Shown: positions 7,265 through 43,459 of the stretch, piece after piece
How positions within the stretch are numbered: the stretch's first letter is position 1
How the letters are laid out: every line of letters starts with the position of its first letter
NCBI RefSeq assembly: GCF_014775655.1
Contig: NZ_CP061274.1
Location: forward strand, 248,001 to 312,000
Length of the DNA stretch: 64,000 bases
DNA from: Clavibacter zhangzhiyongii
GTDB taxonomy: Bacteria; Actinomycetota; Actinomycetes; Actinomycetales; Microbacteriaceae
Direction: 5' to 3'
Translations under genes and position numbers: made by a program
Notes under the pieces: model-generated
Seen by the model: the letters and a program-made list of their open reading frames with translations, nothing else
Databases searched by the model: none
What the model was told of the DNA's origin: nothing

Positions 7265-7659
7265 CCTGGCCCGCGCTGCACATCACCCGTTCCGTCGACG
7301 CCGACGTGGCGTCCGTCGTCGCCGTGGCGGGGGATCCCGCGCGGCTGCCCGAGTGGGCGGCGGGCGTCAGCTCGGGCATCCGGCTCGAGGGCGGGCGCTG
7401 GCTGTCGGACTCGCCGATGGGCGCCGTCGAGATCGCGTTCACCGGGCCGCGCGAGCTCGGGATCCTCGACCACGACGTGACGCTCCCCGACGGCACCGTG
7501 GTCCGCAACCCGTTGCGCGTCCTCCCGAACGACGAGGGCAGCGAGGTCGTCTTCACCCTCTTCCGCCGGCCGGGCATGACCGACGTCACGTTCGCGGAGG
7601 ACGCGGCGCTCGTCGCGGCCGACCTGGAGCGGCTCGCGGCGCTGGTGGCCGGCGGCTGA
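7261..7659 (+). CDS. SRPBCC-like (polyketide cyclase/dehydrase fold) protein
   Basis: A 132-residue protein starting with the GTG that overlaps the acetyltransferase stop. LHITRSVDADVASVVAVAGDPARLPEWAAGV resembles the first helix and strand of START/SRPBCC ligand-binding proteins, and VVFTLFRRPGM resembles the last strand. The fold call is by pattern only and no catalytic residues are evident. It is probably cytoplasmic and co-expressed with the preceding acetyltransferase. Confidence 0.55.
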   Translation: MTWPALHITRSVDADVASVVAVAGDPARLPEWAAGVSSGIRLEGGRWLSDSPMGAVEIAFTGPRELGILDHDVTLPDGTVVRNPLRVLPNDEGSEVVFTLFRRPGMTDVTFAEDAALVAADLERLAALVAGG

Positions 7660-7697
7660 TCCGGGCCGGGTCGCCGCGGCGCCGCCACACTGGACCC

Positions 7698-8612
7698 ATG
7701 AGCACCGCCGCCACCGCCCTCGCCCGCCTCGTCGAGGGGATCGACCGCGAGCGGCTCGGCGCGTACGGCGTCGTCGTGCGGATCGGCGACGACGAGGTCG
7801 CGCACCGCTGGCGCAGCGACGATCGCGAGAACCTCTACTCGGTGTCGAAGGGCGTGTGCGCGCTCGCCGCGGGCATCGCCGTCGACGAGGGGATCCTCCG
7901 CCTCGACACGCGCGTCCCCGAGCTGCTGCCGGATCTCGACCTCGGCCCGGGCGTCGACGGCGTCACCGTCGAGCATCTCCTCACCATGACCGGCGGCATC
8001 GACTTCGCCTGGTTCGGCGACGAGCCCGTGCCCGGTCCCGACCTCGCGCAGGCGATGCTCGGGCTCCCGACCCACGGCCCCGGGGCGGTGTTCCGCTACA
8101 GCGACGCCAGCCCCTACGTCGCCATGCGGATGCTCGCCGCCGCGGTCGGCGACGTGCGCGACTGGCTCCTCCCGCGCCTGTTCGCACCGCTCGGCATCGA
8201 GAACCCGCAGTGGCACCGCTGCCCGCTCGGCTTCATCGTCGGCGGCAGCGGCCTGGAGCTGCGCACCGGCGAGCTCGCGCGCATCGGCCGGCTGCTCCGC
8301 GACCGAGGCGCCTGGGAGGGTCGACAGCTCGTGAGCGCGGAGTGGATCGACCGGATGCACGGCAGCTGGGTTCCGACCGGCGCCGACGACCCCGCCGCCC
8401 CCTTCGCCCGCTACGGCCTCGCCACCTGGGACGGCCCCGGCGACGCGTGGCGTCTCGACGGCCGGTACGGGCAGTACGTGCTTGTGGACGGATCCCGCGA
8501 CGCGGTCGTCACCATCACGGCGCACGAGGAGGAGCGCGACCACCTGCTCGCGGAGCTCGCGGCGGCGGCCGTCGCGGCCAGCGCGCCCGTCGTCAGCCGG
8601 CCGGTGCCGTGA
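7698..8612 (+). CDS. Serine hydrolase, beta-lactamase/penicillin-binding-protein fold
   Basis: A 304-residue protein of the class C/AmpH-like superfamily. The nucleophile motif SVSK is at residues 48-51, the second motif is YSDAS in place of YxN, and the domain continues to ITAHEE near the end. No signal peptide is visible, so it is probably a cytoplasmic esterase or peptidase rather than a cell-wall enzyme. It starts at the ATG at 7698. Its 3' end overlaps the convergent rhodanese gene by 20 bases. Confidence 0.8.
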   Translation: MSTAATALARLVEGIDRERLGAYGVVVRIGDDEVAHRWRSDDRENLYSVSKGVCALAAGIAVDEGILRLDTRVPELLPDLDLGPGVDGVTVEHLLTMTGGIDFAWFGDEPVPGPDLAQAMLGLPTHGPGAVFRYSDASPYVAMRMLAAAVGDVRDWLLPRLFAPLGIENPQWHRCPLGFIVGGSGLELRTGELARIGRLLRDRGAWEGRQLVSAEWIDRMHGSWVPTGADDPAAPFARYGLATWDGPGDAWRLDGRYGQYVLVDGSRDAVVTITAHEEERDHLLAELAAAAVAASAPVVSRPVP

Positions 8613-9021
8613 GCGGATCCGGCGCCCGCCGCGTGCGCCCCGTGTCCGTGACCACCGCGTAGCCCTCGCGCGCCCAGTACTCGAACCCGCCGATCAGCTC
8701 CTGCACGCGCGTGTAGCCGAGCGTCGCGAGCGTGAGGGCGGCGCGCGTGCTCCCGTTGCACCCGGGACCCCAGCAGTAGACGACGACGCGCGCGTCCCGG
8801 TCGGGCACCTCGGCGGCGGCGCGCGCGGCGAGCTCGGCGCCGGGGATGTGGAGGGCTCCCGGGATCCGCCCCTGGCGCCACGACGCGTCGGATCGCACGT
8901 CCACCACGAGGGGCGCGGCGCCGCTCGCGCGGTCGGCGGCGAGGTCGGCGGGATCCGTCTCGTAGGTCAGCTTGGCGGCGAAGAAGTCGGTCGCGGTGAG
9001 GCTCGTCTGCATGCCCTCCAT
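8593..9021 (-). CDS. Rhodanese-like sulfurtransferase domain protein
   Basis: A single rhodanese domain of 142 residues. LVVDVRSDASWRQGRIPGALHIPG is the conserved cradle. The active loop reads VVYCWGPGCNGSTRAA, with the first cysteine as the likely persulfide carrier; this CxGPxCNxS variant occurs in a known subgroup. The start may be 9021 or 9012; upstream methionines lie outside the domain. It is divergent from an Lrp/AsnC regulator and converges, with a short overlap, on the serine hydrolase gene. Confidence 0.85.
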   Translation of the reverse strand: MEGMQTSLTATDFFAAKLTYETDPADLAADRASGAAPLVVDVRSDASWRQGRIPGALHIPGAELAARAAAEVPDRDARVVVYCWGPGCNGSTRAALTLATLGYTRVQELIGGFEYWAREGYAVVTDTGRTRRAPDPLTAPAG

Positions 9022-39536: not shown

Positions 39537-40478
39537 CTAGTTCGCGGCGCTGGTGTTGACGGATCCGTTGACGCCGTTCGGGTAGAACCCGCCCTTCGTC
39601 ACGGCCTTGTTGTTCAGGTACACGATGTTCAGCACCTGGCCGGGGGTCCGGCTGAAGGCGATCGCGTTGGCGTCGGTCGGCACGAGGTTCGCGCCGCCCG
39701 AGACCGTGACGCCCTGGTCGAGGTCCGTGGGGCCGTCGAGCGAGTCGCGCGCGTTCGAGATCGCGTTGGCCGGCTCGGCCAGGCCGCGGGCGAACAGCTG
39801 CGAGCGGATGATGCCCGCGTGGTACGCCTCGACCGCGAGGATGCCGGCGGCCGCCTCGAGGTACGTCTTGTTGGTGATGAGGGGCGCGGCGCCCTTGTAC
39901 GCCGTGACTCCCACGTCCTCGAAGATGAACGAGGCCAGCAGGAAGTTCTCCTGGTTGGCGAACGCGTCGAACTTCTCGCCCGGCTTGATGAGGCCCGCGG
40001 CGGTCGCGGCGGCGGAGAACGCGGCGTCGAGGTCGATCGCGGGACGCGCGACCTTCGCCGAGCCGAGGGCGGCGCGCAGGAACTTGACGTGCGCCTTCTC
40101 GTCCTGCGCGATCTCGTACGCGTACTGGCGGATCGCGTAGTCCTTGAACTGCACCGCGCGGCCGCCGGTCACGTTGCCGGGGGTCCCGACGCCCGAGATG
40201 TCGTTCGGCACGAGGCCGTTGCCGGTGACGGCGCGGAGGTAGAACTCGGCCTCGAGGTACTCGAGGTTGAGCGCGAAGTTGAGGACGGCGGCGTCGGTGA
40301 CCGCGCCCGCGTCGGCCTCGGCCTGCGCGTCGGCGGCCTGGGCGCCCGTCGCGGGGATGAGGGCGGCGGCGCCGACCCCGAGACCGGCGACGCCGGCCGC
40401 GCTGAAGAAGCGGCGGCGGTCGAGCGGCGACTGCGCGCTCTTGTCGATGGCCTGGGTGATGAACTTCCTGTCGAACAT
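39537..40478 (-). CDS. Exported ferritin-like domain protein (desiccation-related type)
   Basis: A 313-residue protein with a Tat-like signal ([22 protein letters not shown] ending TGAQA). A four-helix ferritin-like domain follows with [13 protein letters not shown] and [14 protein letters not shown], and later [13 protein letters not shown] and [14 protein letters not shown]. The paired Glu/His motifs could hold a di-metal site. This family (ferritin_2, plant desiccation-related Pcc13-62 type) has no firm enzymatic role. GGAG lies 6 bases before the ATG. The gene is alone on its transcript. Confidence 0.85.
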
Positions 40479-40666
40479 GTGACGCTCCGGAGGTCTCGGC
40501 GGTGGGCATGGCTCTTCCATGAGCATCCGCTCGGCTCACGATCCGCTCGCGGCCTCCCGTGCGCAATGGCAGCGCCCCCGCATCACCACGGGGATTCGCT
40601 CCGGGGCTACGGGGATCCGGCTCCTGACCCGCGTCCGGGGGGCATCGAGGACGCGCGGTCGTCCGC

Positions 40667-41248
40667 TCAGCCCGCGGCGCGCGCCTGCGCCGCGGCGAAG
40701 GCGGCGAAGGCGGCGTCGACGCGGTGCCGGTCGCCGGTGAGGAGCAGGTCGACCATGAGGCCGCGCATCACGCCGAGGATCACGGTGGCCGCGGCCGTGG
40801 CCTCCGCGGGCGGCCGTCCCGCCGCCTCGAGCGCCCCGGCGATGAGGGCGGTGCGCTCCCGCACGGAGCGCGCCACCGCGGCCGCGAAGGGCGGGTCGCC
40901 GTGCAGGCTGCGGCCGGTGATCGCGACGAAGAGCCGCACGTGCCGGCGGCCCTCGGGATCCGTCGCCCGCGCCCACAGCGCACGCAGCGGGTCGTCCGCG
41001 CCCGCCACGAGATCCGGGGACGCGAACGTCTCGGCGAGCACGCGCTCGACGATCTCGGCGATGAGCGCGTCGCGGGTCGCGAAGTGGTGCACGAGGGTGG
41101 CGTGGCTCACCCCGACGCCGTCGGCGATGCCGCGCAGGGTGAGGTCGTCGAGGCCGCGGTCGAGGACGTGCTCGGTGGCCGCGCGGAGCAGCTCGCCGCG
41201 GCGGTGGGCGTAGCGCAGCCGGCGTCCGTCGATCGCGTCGTCGTCCAT
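40667..41248 (-). CDS. TetR family transcriptional regulator
   Basis: A TetR protein of about 193 residues. RGELLRAATEHVLDRGLDDLTLRGIADGVGVSHATLVHHFATRDALIAEIVERV is the DNA-binding domain. The C-terminal domain (RRHVRLFVAITGRSLHGDPPFAAAVA) is of unknown ligand. The in-frame ATG at 41314 lies inside the operator and promoter region, so I prefer the ATG at 41248, which has GGGAGG upstream. It is divergent from the secreted polyester hydrolase and probably represses it. Confidence 0.85.
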   Translation of the reverse strand: MDDDAIDGRRLRYAHRRGELLRAATEHVLDRGLDDLTLRGIADGVGVSHATLVHHFATRDALIAEIVERVLAETFASPDLVAGADDPLRALWARATDPEGRRHVRLFVAITGRSLHGDPPFAAAVARSVRERTALIAGALEAAGRPPAEATAAATVILGVMRGLMVDLLLTGDRHRVDAAFAAFAAAQARAAG

Positions 41249-41302
41249 GCGCTCGTCGCCTCCCGCCTCGCCCGACGCGGTCGCGGGGGCGCCGCCGGGA
41301 GA

Positions 41303-41335
41303 TTGCTTGACCATCCGGTAGAGCAAATGTAGCGT
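41303..41335 (+). promoter_or_regulatory. Promoter and TetR-type operator in front of the polyester hydrolase
   Basis: TTGACC (41307-41312), 17 bases, then TAGCGT (41330-41335) make a credible promoter for the plus-strand hydrolase. The inverted repeat TTGCT (41303-41307) and AGCAA (41322-41326) brackets it, so a dimer of the divergent TetR protein could block RNA polymerase. Confidence 0.55.
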
Positions 41336-41419
41336 GCGGGGCATGACGCGCCCGCGGGGCCCGGGATCGTGTTCCCGGAGGATCGGGCGGGCGCACGGAC
41401 CGTCCCCGGGGAGGGCACG

Positions 41420-42310
41420 ATGACCATGACCATGACCACGAGGAGCGGCCGGCGAGGCCTGCTCATGACCACGGCGACGATGCTGGTGGCGGCGGGGGCC
41501 GCCCTCGGCCTCACCGCCCCCGCGCAGGCGGCGGCCGTCAACCCGTACGAGCGCGGACCCGAGCCGAGCACCGCGAGCATCGAGGCCGCGCGCGGCTCGT
41601 TCGCGGTCTCGGAGACCTCGGTGTCCCGCCTGGCGGTGCGCGGCTTCGGCGGCGGCACCGTCTACTACCCGACCACCACGAGCGCCGGCACCTTCGGCGC
41701 GGTCGCGATCGCGCCCGGCTACACGGCGCGCCAGTCGAGCATCGCGTGGCTCGGCCCGCGCCTCGCGTCGCAGGGCTTCGTCGTGTTCACCATCGACACG
41801 ACCACCACCTCCGACCAGCCGAGCTCGCGCGGCGACCAGCTCCGGGCGGCGCTGTCGTACCTCGCCACGAGCAGCTCCGTGCGCGACCGGGTCGACGGCT
41901 CGCGGCTCGCGGTCATGGGCCACTCCATGGGCGGCGGCGGATCCCTGCAGGCGGCCAAGGACGACCCCGCCATCCGCGCGGTCATCCCCATGACGCCGTA
42001 CAACCTCGACAAGACCTGGCCGGAGGTCGTGGCGCCCACGCTCATCATCGGCGCGGAGGACGACCGCACGGCGCCGGTCGACCGCCACGCGGAGCCCTTC
42101 TACGAGTCGCTGACGCGGGCCTCGGAGAAGGCGTACCTCGAGCTGCGCGGGGCGAGCCACTTCGCGCCGAACGTCTCGAACACGACCATCGCGAGCGCGA
42201 GCATCGCCTGGCTGAAGCGCCACGTCGACGGCGACCTCCGGTACGAGCGCTTCATCTGCCCCGCGCCGCCGGTGAGCCTCACCATCAGCGAGCAGCGCAG
42301 CACCTGCTGA
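41420..42310 (+). CDS. Secreted polyester hydrolase (cutinase / PET hydrolase family)
   Basis: A 296-residue secreted alpha/beta hydrolase closely resembling Thermobifida cutinases and IsPETase as I recall them. Signal peptide ends AQA, mature NPYERGPEP. Catalytic Ser169 (GHSMGGGG), Asp215 (GAEDDRTAP), His247 (GASHFAPN); oxyanion Tyr101 in PGYTARQSSIAWLGPRLAS. The substrate-cleft Trp of TfCut2/IsPETase (TPW or APW) is Tyr194 here (TPYNLDKTW). C-terminal cysteines (FICP, RSTC) match the conserved disulfide. In a plant-associated bacterium the natural substrate is probably cutin. GGGGAGGG lies 5 bases before the ATG. A TetR gene is divergent. Confidence 0.92.
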   Translation: MTMTMTTRSGRRGLLMTTATMLVAAGAALGLTAPAQAAAVNPYERGPEPSTASIEAARGSFAVSETSVSRLAVRGFGGGTVYYPTTTSAGTFGAVAIAPGYTARQSSIAWLGPRLASQGFVVFTIDTTTTSDQPSSRGDQLRAALSYLATSSSVRDRVDGSRLAVMGHSMGGGGSLQAAKDDPAIRAVIPMTPYNLDKTWPEVVAPTLIIGAEDDRTAPVDRHAEPFYESLTRASEKAYLELRGASHFAPNVSNTTIASASIAWLKRHVDGDLRYERFICPAPPVSLTISEQRSTC

Positions 42311-42364
42311 GCCGGGCGGCCGCGGGCCGGCGGCGATGTCGGGGGTGGTGGGTAGAACGGACCC

Positions 42365-43459
42365 GTGACCACCCCCGCTCCCGTCGCCGACCCGCGGCCG
42401 CGCCGCGCGCTGCTCGACATCACGCGCATCTACGCGGAGCCCGCCGCCCTCGAGCTGCCGCGCGGGCAGGAGATCGTGGCGGCGTGGCCCGACGCCACCA
42501 TCGTCGAGGTGGCCTCGCACTGGCAGATCCCCGAGGTGCACGGCGACGAGGCCAACGTCGCGCGCTGGGTGCGCATCAAGACGGAGGCGCTCGTCGTGGG
42601 CGTCAAGAAGTCGCTCGTCACCCGGCCCAACGGGCGCTCGGCCGACTTCATCGCCCCGTCCACCGCCAACGGCTGCGCCATGGCGTGCGCGTACTGCTAC
42701 GTGCCGAGGCGCAAGGGCTACAGCAACCCCATCACCGTGTTCGCCAACATCGAGCAGATCCAGCGCCACGTGGCCCGGCACATCGCCAAGCAGGGGCCCA
42801 AGGTCGAGCCGAACCAGTGCGATCCGGAGGCCTGGGTCTACGACATCGGCGAGAACAGCGACTGCTCGGCCGACGCGCGCGTGAGCGCGAACGTGCGCGA
42901 CCTGGTCGACCTGTTCCGCATGTCGCCCACGGCCAAGGCCTCGTTCGCCACCAAGCACGTCAACCGCGAGCTGCTGGAGTGGGATCCGATGGGCCGCACC
43001 CGCGTGCGCTTCTCGCTCATGCCGGAGGCCATCGCGCGCGTCACCGACATCCGCACGTCGCCCATGCCGGAGCGCATCGCCGCCATCGACGACTTCGTCG
43101 AGGCCGGCTACGAGGTGCACCTCAACTTCTCGCCCGTCATCCTCACGCCGGGCTGGCGCGCCGAGTGGGAGCAGCTGCTCCGCACGCTCGACGACACGCT
43201 CGCGCCCGCCACCAAGGCGCAGCTCGCGGCCGAGGTCATCCTGCTCACGCACAACGAGCAGCTCCACGAGGTCAACATGGGCTGGCACCCGAAGGCCGAG
43301 GAGCTCATCTGGCAGCCGGGCATGCAGGAGCGGAAGGTCAGCGAGAACGGCGCCGTCAACGTGCGCTACCGCCGCGGCCTCAAGGGCGACGCGGTGGCCG
43401 AGTTCACGGCGCTGGTGCGCCGGATCATGCCGTACTGCCGCATCCGCTACGCGTTCTGA
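42365..43459 (+). CDS. Spore photoproduct lyase-like radical SAM protein
   Basis: A 364-residue radical SAM protein. The cluster motif CAMACAYC (Cys104, Cys108, Cys111; CxxxCxxC) and the SPL-like framework (LVTRPNGRSADFIAPSTANGC, FSLMPEAIARV, VILTHNEQLHEVN) place it in the spore photoproduct lyase family. Classical SPL repairs UV-induced thymine dimers in spores. The host is not expected to sporulate, so another DNA-repair or unknown radical reaction is likely. The GTG start is 54 bases after the polyester hydrolase stop; no terminator was seen between them. Confidence 0.85.
   Translation: MTTPAPVADPRPRRALLDITRIYAEPAALELPRGQEIVAAWPDATIVEVASHWQIPEVHGDEANVARWVRIKTEALVVGVKKSLVTRPNGRSADFIAPSTANGCAMACAYCYVPRRKGYSNPITVFANIEQIQRHVARHIAKQGPKVEPNQCDPEAWVYDIGENSDCSADARVSANVRDLVDLFRMSPTAKASFATKHVNRELLEWDPMGRTRVRFSLMPEAIARVTDIRTSPMPERIAAIDDFVEAGYEVHLNFSPVILTPGWRAEWEQLLRTLDDTLAPATKAQLAAEVILLTHNEQLHEVNMGWHPKAEELIWQPGMQERKVSENGAVNVRYRRGLKGDAVAEFTALVRRIMPYCRIRYAF

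What the first reader, a model, noticed from the sequence alone, without database searches (positions are those of the whole stretch)
41420..42310. Secreted PET-hydrolase/cutinase-family enzyme with a Trp-to-Tyr change in the substrate cleft
The protein keeps a full catalytic triad (Ser169, Asp215, His247), the oxyanion Tyr101, a Sec signal and the C-terminal cysteines of Thermobifida cutinases. The segment PGYTARQSSI-W-GPRLAS-GFVV is strikingly like IsPETase. The mobile cleft tryptophan of that family is Tyr194 here, and the residue before Ser is His as in cutinases. Such enzymes are expected in soil thermophiles, less so in a plant-associated Microbacteriaceae. Cutin is the likely natural substrate.
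Basis: partly seen in the sequence, partly recalled or inferred. Interest (0 to 1): 0.75.

Follow-up and report, generated by a model that had tools for sequence, protein, structure and literature searches.

The report
TetR-linked secreted cutinase, tyrosine cleft variant
A plant-associated Clavibacter bacterium carries a secreted enzyme of the family that digests plant cutin and some plastics, with one unusual cleft residue and, newly noticed here, a neighbouring repressor-type gene and a conserved switch-like DNA site; the enzyme is a known kind, the apparent switch is the more interesting part.

Summary
Window 41420-42310 (+) encodes a 296-residue member of the bacterial cutinase/PET-hydrolase family (Pfam PF12740, 384 bits, cut-off 28) with intact triad, oxyanion residues and C-terminal cysteines. 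Tyr194 replaces the cleft tryptophan.

The Tyr is a branch trait: of 140 distinct homologues at least 55% identical in the loci I fetched, 131 have Trp and 9 Tyr, the 9 being the Clavibacter and Rathayibacter ones. It has a precedent in PET30 of Kaistella, a weak PET hydrolase (PMC8767016).

A divergent TetR-type gene is in exactly the 7 of 18 Clavibacter genomes that have the enzyme. A palindrome-like T[T/A]GACC-N4-GGT is in 19 of 23 TetR-linked upstream regions and 1 of 117 unlinked ones; in all 19 a TAnnnT follows at 17-18 bases, as in a promoter. The pair is present or absent as a unit at one site.

Best reading: an inducible secreted polyesterase, probably for cutin, repressed by its own TetR. 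Activity, binding and repression are untested. The enzyme is ordinary; the regulator-enzyme cassette is the new part.

The parts
41420..42310 (+). Cutinase/PET-hydrolase-family enzyme, 296 aa, stop TGA at 42308-42310
   Evidence: dN/dS 0.21-0.27 against five Clavibacter orthologues
41420..41536 (+). Likely N-terminal export signal (residues 1-39, hydrophobic core, ...APAQAAA); Sec or Tat not decided
   Evidence: sequence and alignment; no predictor run
41924..41926 (+). Codon of nucleophile Ser169 (GHSMGG)
41999..42001 (+). Codon of Tyr194, at the place of the mobile cleft Trp (IsPETase W185)
42062..42064 (+). Codon of Asp215 of the triad
42158..42160 (+). Codon of His247 of the triad
40667..41248 (-). 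Divergent TetR-type regulator (193 aa if it starts at the Met at 41248; the longer frame to 41311 would start inside the motif)
   Evidence: Pfam TetR_N 38.2 bits, cut-off 24; in exactly the Clavibacter genomes with the enzyme; start codon inferred
41307..41322 (+). Putative TetR operator TTGACC-ATCC-GGTAGA
   Evidence: motif in 19 of 23 TetR-linked and 1 of 117 unlinked upstream regions; only match in the window; 4 sites in the genome
41307..41312 (+). Presumed -35 box TTGACC of the enzyme's promoter, inside the motif
   Evidence: the strict sigma-70 scan found no promoter, so inference
41330..41335 (+). Presumed -10 box TAGCGT, 17 nt downstream of the -35 box
   Evidence: TAnnnT at 17 or 18 nt in 19 of 19 motif-bearing regions; 2 of 190 at ten control spacings
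39537..40526 (-). Ferritin-like protein, left border of the cassette's site (context only)
   Evidence: PF13668
42365..43459 (+). Spore photoproduct lyase family protein, right border in some genomes (context only)
   Evidence: TIGR03886 615.7 bits, cut-off 437.55

Best explanation
A two-gene cassette: a secreted serine polyesterase of the bacterial cutinase/PET-hydrolase family and, divergently, its own TetR-type repressor. With no inducer a TetR dimer would sit on TTGACC-N4-GGT at 41307-41322, cover the -35 box of the enzyme gene and keep it (and probably itself) off. A product of ester-polymer breakdown, most likely a cutin-type hydroxy fatty acid, would release it. The exported enzyme then cuts ester bonds by the Ser169-His247-Asp215 triad with the oxyanion hole at Tyr101 and Met170; Tyr194 forms the cleft wall in place of Trp, with His223 and Phe227 beside it as in cutinases. 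Shown: family, intact catalytic residues, Tyr194 and its restriction to one branch in the sample, TetR linkage, conserved motif with promoter spacing, presence or absence as a unit. Inferred: binding, repression, inducer, substrate, export route, effect of the Tyr.
For: Family and residues. TetR gene in 7 of 18 Clavibacter genomes, the same 7 that hold the enzyme, with a second pair in G001; divergent TetR at 23 of 140 homologues of at least 55% identity. Motif T[T/A]GACC-N4-GGT in 19 of 23 linked (18 by the stricter TTGACC-N3-Y-GGT), 1 of 117 unlinked (>=55%) and 0 of 32 (<55%) upstream regions; letter-shuffled regions give 0.0013-0.0014 each. Arms TTGACC/GGTCAA exact in L025 and L046. TAnnnT at 17-18 nt in 19 of 19, against 2 of 190 at control spacings. 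TetR and enzyme distances correlate, r 0.79, 0 of 5000 permutations as high, 23 pairs. Gap from the inferred TetR start to the enzyme start is about 170 bp, within the '200 bp rule' for divergent TetR targets (PMC3511530, abstract and passages). Pair absent with preserved flanks in G008, G010, G013 and G014.
Against: No binding, expression or activity data. The strict promoter scan found nothing. 117 of 140 close homologues lack a TetR of this kind next door (4 of them had under 700 bases upstream), so the regulator is not needed for the enzyme's function. Three linked regions (L157, L159, L164) lack the motif; the fourth miss, L146, is a shortened copy. The motif was chosen after looking at 18 of these regions, and the linked loci are related, so the 19 are neither blind nor independent. 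One unlinked region, L155, has the motif without a TetR. In 9 of 23 pairs the hit-to-hit gap is over 200 bp. The inducer is a guess: the C-terminal domain matches only sub-cut-off TetR_C models.
Confidence: 0.72

Rival explanations
1. The enzyme is a general lipase/esterase (triglycerides, small esters or surface lipids) and the TetR senses fatty acids or another lipid; polyester is incidental.
For: Of the eight best PDB matches two are deposited as lipases (1jfr 'LIPASE', 7ykq 'Triacylglycerol lipase'). A Streptomyces BHET-degrading esterase is annotated LipA (PMC11169514, start of abstract in the listing, and passages; not compared with this protein). The best TetR structure match is KstR2 (4w1u, E 5.9e-10), over residues 35-114 only, mainly the DNA-binding part.
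Against: The six best PDB matches are named PET hydrolases. The named TetR-linked carriers outside the family are soil or plant-litter genera (Promicromonospora, Kineosporia, Nocardioides; habitats recalled).
Confidence: 0.4
2. The Tyr marks loss of aromatic polyester activity: the branch has specialised on aliphatic plant polyesters and would not degrade PET usefully.
For: Tyr in 9 of 9 members of the branch, gene under purifying selection; PET30 with Tyr is a weak PET hydrolase, the abstract putting another enzyme (from context PET27) 38 times above it (PMC8767016, passages).
Against: In PET30 the change to Trp lost activity instead of raising it (same paper, data not shown there), so the residue alone does not decide; the rest of the cleft here is of cutinase type.
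Confidence: 0.45
3. The TetR regulates only itself, the motif is its own operator, and the enzyme is not under its control.
For: In the Streptomyces survey, of four regulators more than 200 bp from the neighbour two bound the intergenic DNA without regulating the neighbour, one did not bind and one activated (PMC3511530, passages); 9 of 23 pairs here have hit-to-hit gaps over 200 bp.
Against: In the window the gap is about 170 bp, and the motif coincides with a -35-like TTGACC reading towards the enzyme with a TAnnnT at 17-18 nt in 19 of 19.
Confidence: 0.15

Closest known systems
Actinobacterial cutinases / PET hydrolases (Pfam PF12740; PDB 8etx, PET40 8a2c, 1jfr)
   Same: Whole mature chain aligns (393.7 bits to 8etx); triad, Tyr/Phe-Met, His/Phe beside the cleft, C-terminal cysteine pair
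   Different: Tyr194 instead of Trp; divergent TetR with a conserved motif
IsPETase (PDB 5xg0)
   Same: GxSMGGGG motif; 40% identity over 113 residues of the compared segment
   Different: His168, His223, Phe227 and Tyr194 where IsPETase has Trp, Ser214, Ile218 and Trp185 (the numbers 185, 214 and 218 from PMC10080609)
PET30 of Kaistella jeonii (Bacteroidota)
   Same: Tyr at the position of the cleft Trp (PMC8767016)
   Different: PET30 has Phe-Met-Tyr, this has Tyr-Met-Tyr; other phylum, with a Por domain; sequences not compared here
BHET hydrolase BdeA (NCBIfam NF051441)
   Same: Full-length match, 474.4 bits
   Different: Below the curated cut-off of 520, so not called a member
Divergent TetR regulator/enzyme pairs of actinobacteria (PMC3511530)
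   Same: Divergent orientation, short gap, operator between the genes
   Different: Target is a secreted cutinase; none such stood among the listed papers of searches (20 of 137 shown; 20 of 1,057 shown)

Membership tests
Bacterial cutinase / PET hydrolase family (PF12740) | Profile match above the curated cut-off | tested here: met
   384.3 bits, cut-off 28
Bacterial cutinase / PET hydrolase family (PF12740) | Ser-Asp-His triad with G-x-S-M-G | tested here: met
   Ser169, Asp215, His247
Bacterial cutinase / PET hydrolase family (PF12740) | Tyr/Phe and Met of the oxyanion hole and clamp | tested here: met
   Tyr101, Met170
Bacterial cutinase / PET hydrolase family (PF12740) | Trp at the third clamp position (usual, not universal, so not decisive: PET30 has Tyr) | tested here: not met
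   Tyr194; 131 of 140 homologues have Trp; PET30 exception
Bacterial cutinase / PET hydrolase family (PF12740) | C-terminal cysteine pair | tested here: met
   Cys280 and Cys296 as in 8etx; the disulphide itself not testable
Bacterial cutinase / PET hydrolase family (PF12740) | Hydrolysis of cutin or polyester | not testable with these tools
   needs an assay
IsPETase-type PETase | Ser and Ile (214, 218) freeing the cleft Trp | tested here: not met
   His223 and Phe227
BdeA BHET hydrolase (NF051441) | Score at or above 520 bits | tested here: not met
   474.4 bits
TetR-type regulator | TetR_N DNA-binding domain above cut-off | tested here: met
   38.2 bits, cut-off 24 (searches used a wrong frame for this protein and found nothing)
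TetR-type regulator | Binds a palindromic operator in the shared promoter and is released by a ligand | not testable with these tools
   conserved palindrome-like motif found; binding untested

The most novel reading that the evidence does not exclude
A dedicated, portable bacterial cutinase switch: the TetR senses a cutin or suberin monomer and, through TTGACC-N4-GGTCAA-like sites, turns on a secreted polyesterase; in Clavibacter and Rathayibacter the enzyme has fixed a Tyr clamp suited to aliphatic plant polyester rather than aromatic substrates. Presence or absence of this unit would mark which strains can use plant cuticle.
Probability: 0.3. Interest if true: 0.55.

Novelty: new variant of a known kind. 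Interest (0 to 1): 0.38.

Why it matters
PET hydrolases are mined heavily as enzymes, while what turns them on in nature seems little described: no regulator of an actinobacterial cutinase stood among the papers listed by searches (14 of 14 shown; 20 of 137; 1 of 1; 20 of 1,057), of which I saw titles and the starts of abstracts. A conserved regulator and site give a direct handle: the regulator's ligand would point to the natural substrate. The natural Tyr variant, kept in one branch, is a clean comparison for what the cleft Trp does.

Tried and rejected
Dienelactone hydrolase or unrelated lipase: rejected, DLH scores 27.2 bits against 384.3 for PETase. Special kinship to IsPETase: rejected, the shared segment is near the family consensus. 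One-off mutation or sequencing error at Tyr194: rejected, 9 of 9 in the branch. Opposite strand as the real gene: its frame is open too and was not searched against databases; the family match is on the + strand. A strict sigma-70 scan of 40600-42400 found no promoter and no terminator. The AlphaFold model had mean pLDDT 70.4 and under 50 at residues 194-198 and 212-249, so I used no geometry from it and ran no fold search. The three other motif sites of the genome were not followed; the backwards-read control gives 2, so they may be chance. Searches gave the TetR in a wrong frame; repeat it rightly. One search for W185Y with PETase found 0 papers. Counts of residue 194 cover only fetched loci: one search kept the best 80 of 425 relatives, and made loci for the best matches only, the later rows of both tables not being read; alignments under about 150 residues and copies alike in a 160-residue slice were dropped before the count. 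The tree (quick method) used 99 chosen rows: 9 Tyr rows of the branch, 74 Trp rows, 16 distant rows.

Full report
What is there. Window 41420-42310 (+) is an open frame of 296 residues with a likely export signal, followed by a mature domain that matches the bacterial cutinase/PET-hydrolase family over its whole length: Pfam PF12740 at 384.3 bits, PDB PET hydrolases up to 393.7 bits. NCBIfam's nearest curated model, the BHET hydrolase BdeA, scores 474.4 bits, under its cut-off of 520. Ser169, Asp215, His247, Tyr101, Met170, His168, His223, Phe227 and the cysteines 280 and 296 are as in the Trp-bearing homologues. Tyr194 stands where a solved relative and IsPETase have Trp.

Where it is. The window lies in a 3,098,336-base single-contig genome. 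The species was not established. Within Microbacteriaceae, matches at E <= 1e-20 are rare: 11 of 398 genomes, 2 of 85 genera, and above 80% identity in 3 genomes, all of the window's genus. In the order, 36 of 396 genomes, and in the class, 78 of 394, have a match at E <= 1e-40, so the family is widespread in actinobacteria at large.

The tyrosine. Over the fetched loci I counted 172 distinct homologues. Of 140 that are at least 55% identical, 131 have Trp and 9 have Tyr: seven Clavibacter copies of at least 86%, one second Clavibacter copy of 70% (G001) and one Rathayibacter (L003). Among 32 more distant ones, nearly all from Clavibacter genomes, 16 have Tyr, 15 Phe and 1 Trp. On a quick tree of 99 rows built without that column, Trp versus not-Trp needs 2 changes, which fits one Trp-to-Tyr change in the Clavibacter/Rathayibacter branch and one on the way to the distant relatives; several forks are weakly supported, so that grouping is not firm. 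Tyr at this place was described before in PET30 of Kaistella jeonii, a weak PET hydrolase whose authors called Phe-Met-Tyr unique and whose change to Trp lost activity (PMC8767016, abstract and passages). PMC10495362 also gives Trp/Tyr at this place for active enzymes (passages). The Tyr is therefore a lineage trait with a precedent, and its effect cannot be read off from sequence.

The neighbour that was missed. On the other strand, ending at 40667, lies a TetR-type regulator (TetR_N 38.2 bits, cut-off 24). Its likely start is the Met at 41248, about 170 bases from the enzyme's start, since the longer frame would begin inside the motif described next. Of 18 Clavibacter genomes, 7 have the enzyme at 70% identity or more (G000, G001, G003, G006, G007, G011, G017) and the same 7 have this TetR, divergently beside it; G001 has two pairs, in two contexts. 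Outside the genus the same divergent pair occurs in Rathayibacter, Promicromonospora, Nocardioides, Kineosporia, an actinomycete MAG and unnamed members of the order: 23 of the 140 homologues in all. No fetched Streptomyces locus has it beside the enzyme.

The switch-like site. The upstream regions of the linked genes share one block, T[T/A]GACC-N4-GGT; in L025 and L046 the arms are exact, TTGACC-N4-GGTCAA. It is in 19 of 23 TetR-linked regions, 1 of 117 unlinked ones and 0 of 32 regions of distant homologues; letter-shuffled regions give 0.0013-0.0014 each. The pattern was drawn up after looking at 18 of these regions, so this is not a blind test. Of the four misses one is the shortened copy in G001, and three are other linked pairs (L157, L159, L164). 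In 19 of 19 motif-bearing regions a TAnnnT follows 17 or 18 bases after the first arm, against 2 of 190 at ten control spacings: the first arm is placed like a -35 box of a promoter reading into the enzyme. The strict sigma-70 scan did not report it. In the window the motif is at 41307-41322, the only match there even with one mismatch allowed; the genome has four matches, with 2 for the backwards control. TetR and enzyme distances across the 23 pairs correlate (r 0.79), which fits joint descent but also reflects shared species history.

A unit in the genome. The site is AraC-type regulator, ferritin-like protein, [TetR-enzyme], [spore photoproduct lyase family], DUF. In G008, G010, G013 and G014 the pair is missing between preserved flanks: homology to the window stops at 40641-40642 and resumes at 42317-42385. 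In G004, G005 and G012 the DUF gene follows the ferritin-like gene at once, and in G016 after a longer gap. In G015 neither TetR nor enzyme was found in the stretch beside the ferritin-like gene; G002 and G009 were not resolved. G003 has TetR and enzyme at the site but no match to the ferritin-like gene. In G001 the 91% copy lacks the motif and matches the enzyme only from about residue 77 on, while its second, 70% pair looks whole. I cannot say whether the unit was lost several times or gained. Between whole Clavibacter copies dN/dS is 0.21-0.27 for the enzyme and 0.13-0.28 for TetR, five comparisons each; against L002, L003 and L004 it is 0.35-0.36 and 0.22-0.58.

Mechanism. The '200 bp rule' for divergent TetR regulators (PMC3511530, abstract and passages) and the position of the motif over the presumed -35 box make repression of the enzyme by this TetR the likeliest reading. 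The ligand is unknown. The genus is plant-associated and several other carriers live on plant matter (recalled), so a cutin-type monomer is the natural guess. None of binding, repression, induction or hydrolysis is shown. The predicted structure was too weak round the cleft to use.

Verdict. An ordinary enzyme family, a lineage-kept clamp variant with one published parallel, and a newly noticed, conserved regulator-motif-enzyme cassette that makes the natural role testable.

Noticed in passing
Own genome G000 C1:228300-229175 (-) and 2058632-2059471 (+), L111 and L112: Two further PETase-family relatives, about 40% identical, with GYS instead of GHS and Tyr or Phe at the cleft Trp; 17 of 18 Clavibacter genomes have at least one family match at E <= 1e-20. 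A Clavibacter-typical branch of unknown substrate.
   Followed up: partly
window 42365-43459 (+): Spore photoproduct lyase family protein (TIGR03886) in a genus not known for spores (recalled); present in 7 of 18 Clavibacter genomes, 3 of them shared with the enzyme's 7.
   Followed up: partly
L208 (G001) 7617-8917: Shortened enzyme copy without the motif beside a TetR in which no break was seen, in a genome with a second pair: looks like decay after replacement.
   Followed up: partly
window 39537-40526 (-): Ferritin-like protein (PF13668); 15 of 18 Clavibacter genomes have two matches at E <= 1e-60.
   Followed up: no
L155 upstream of its enzyme: The only unlinked close homologue with the motif; no TetR of this kind was found beside it.
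   Followed up: partly
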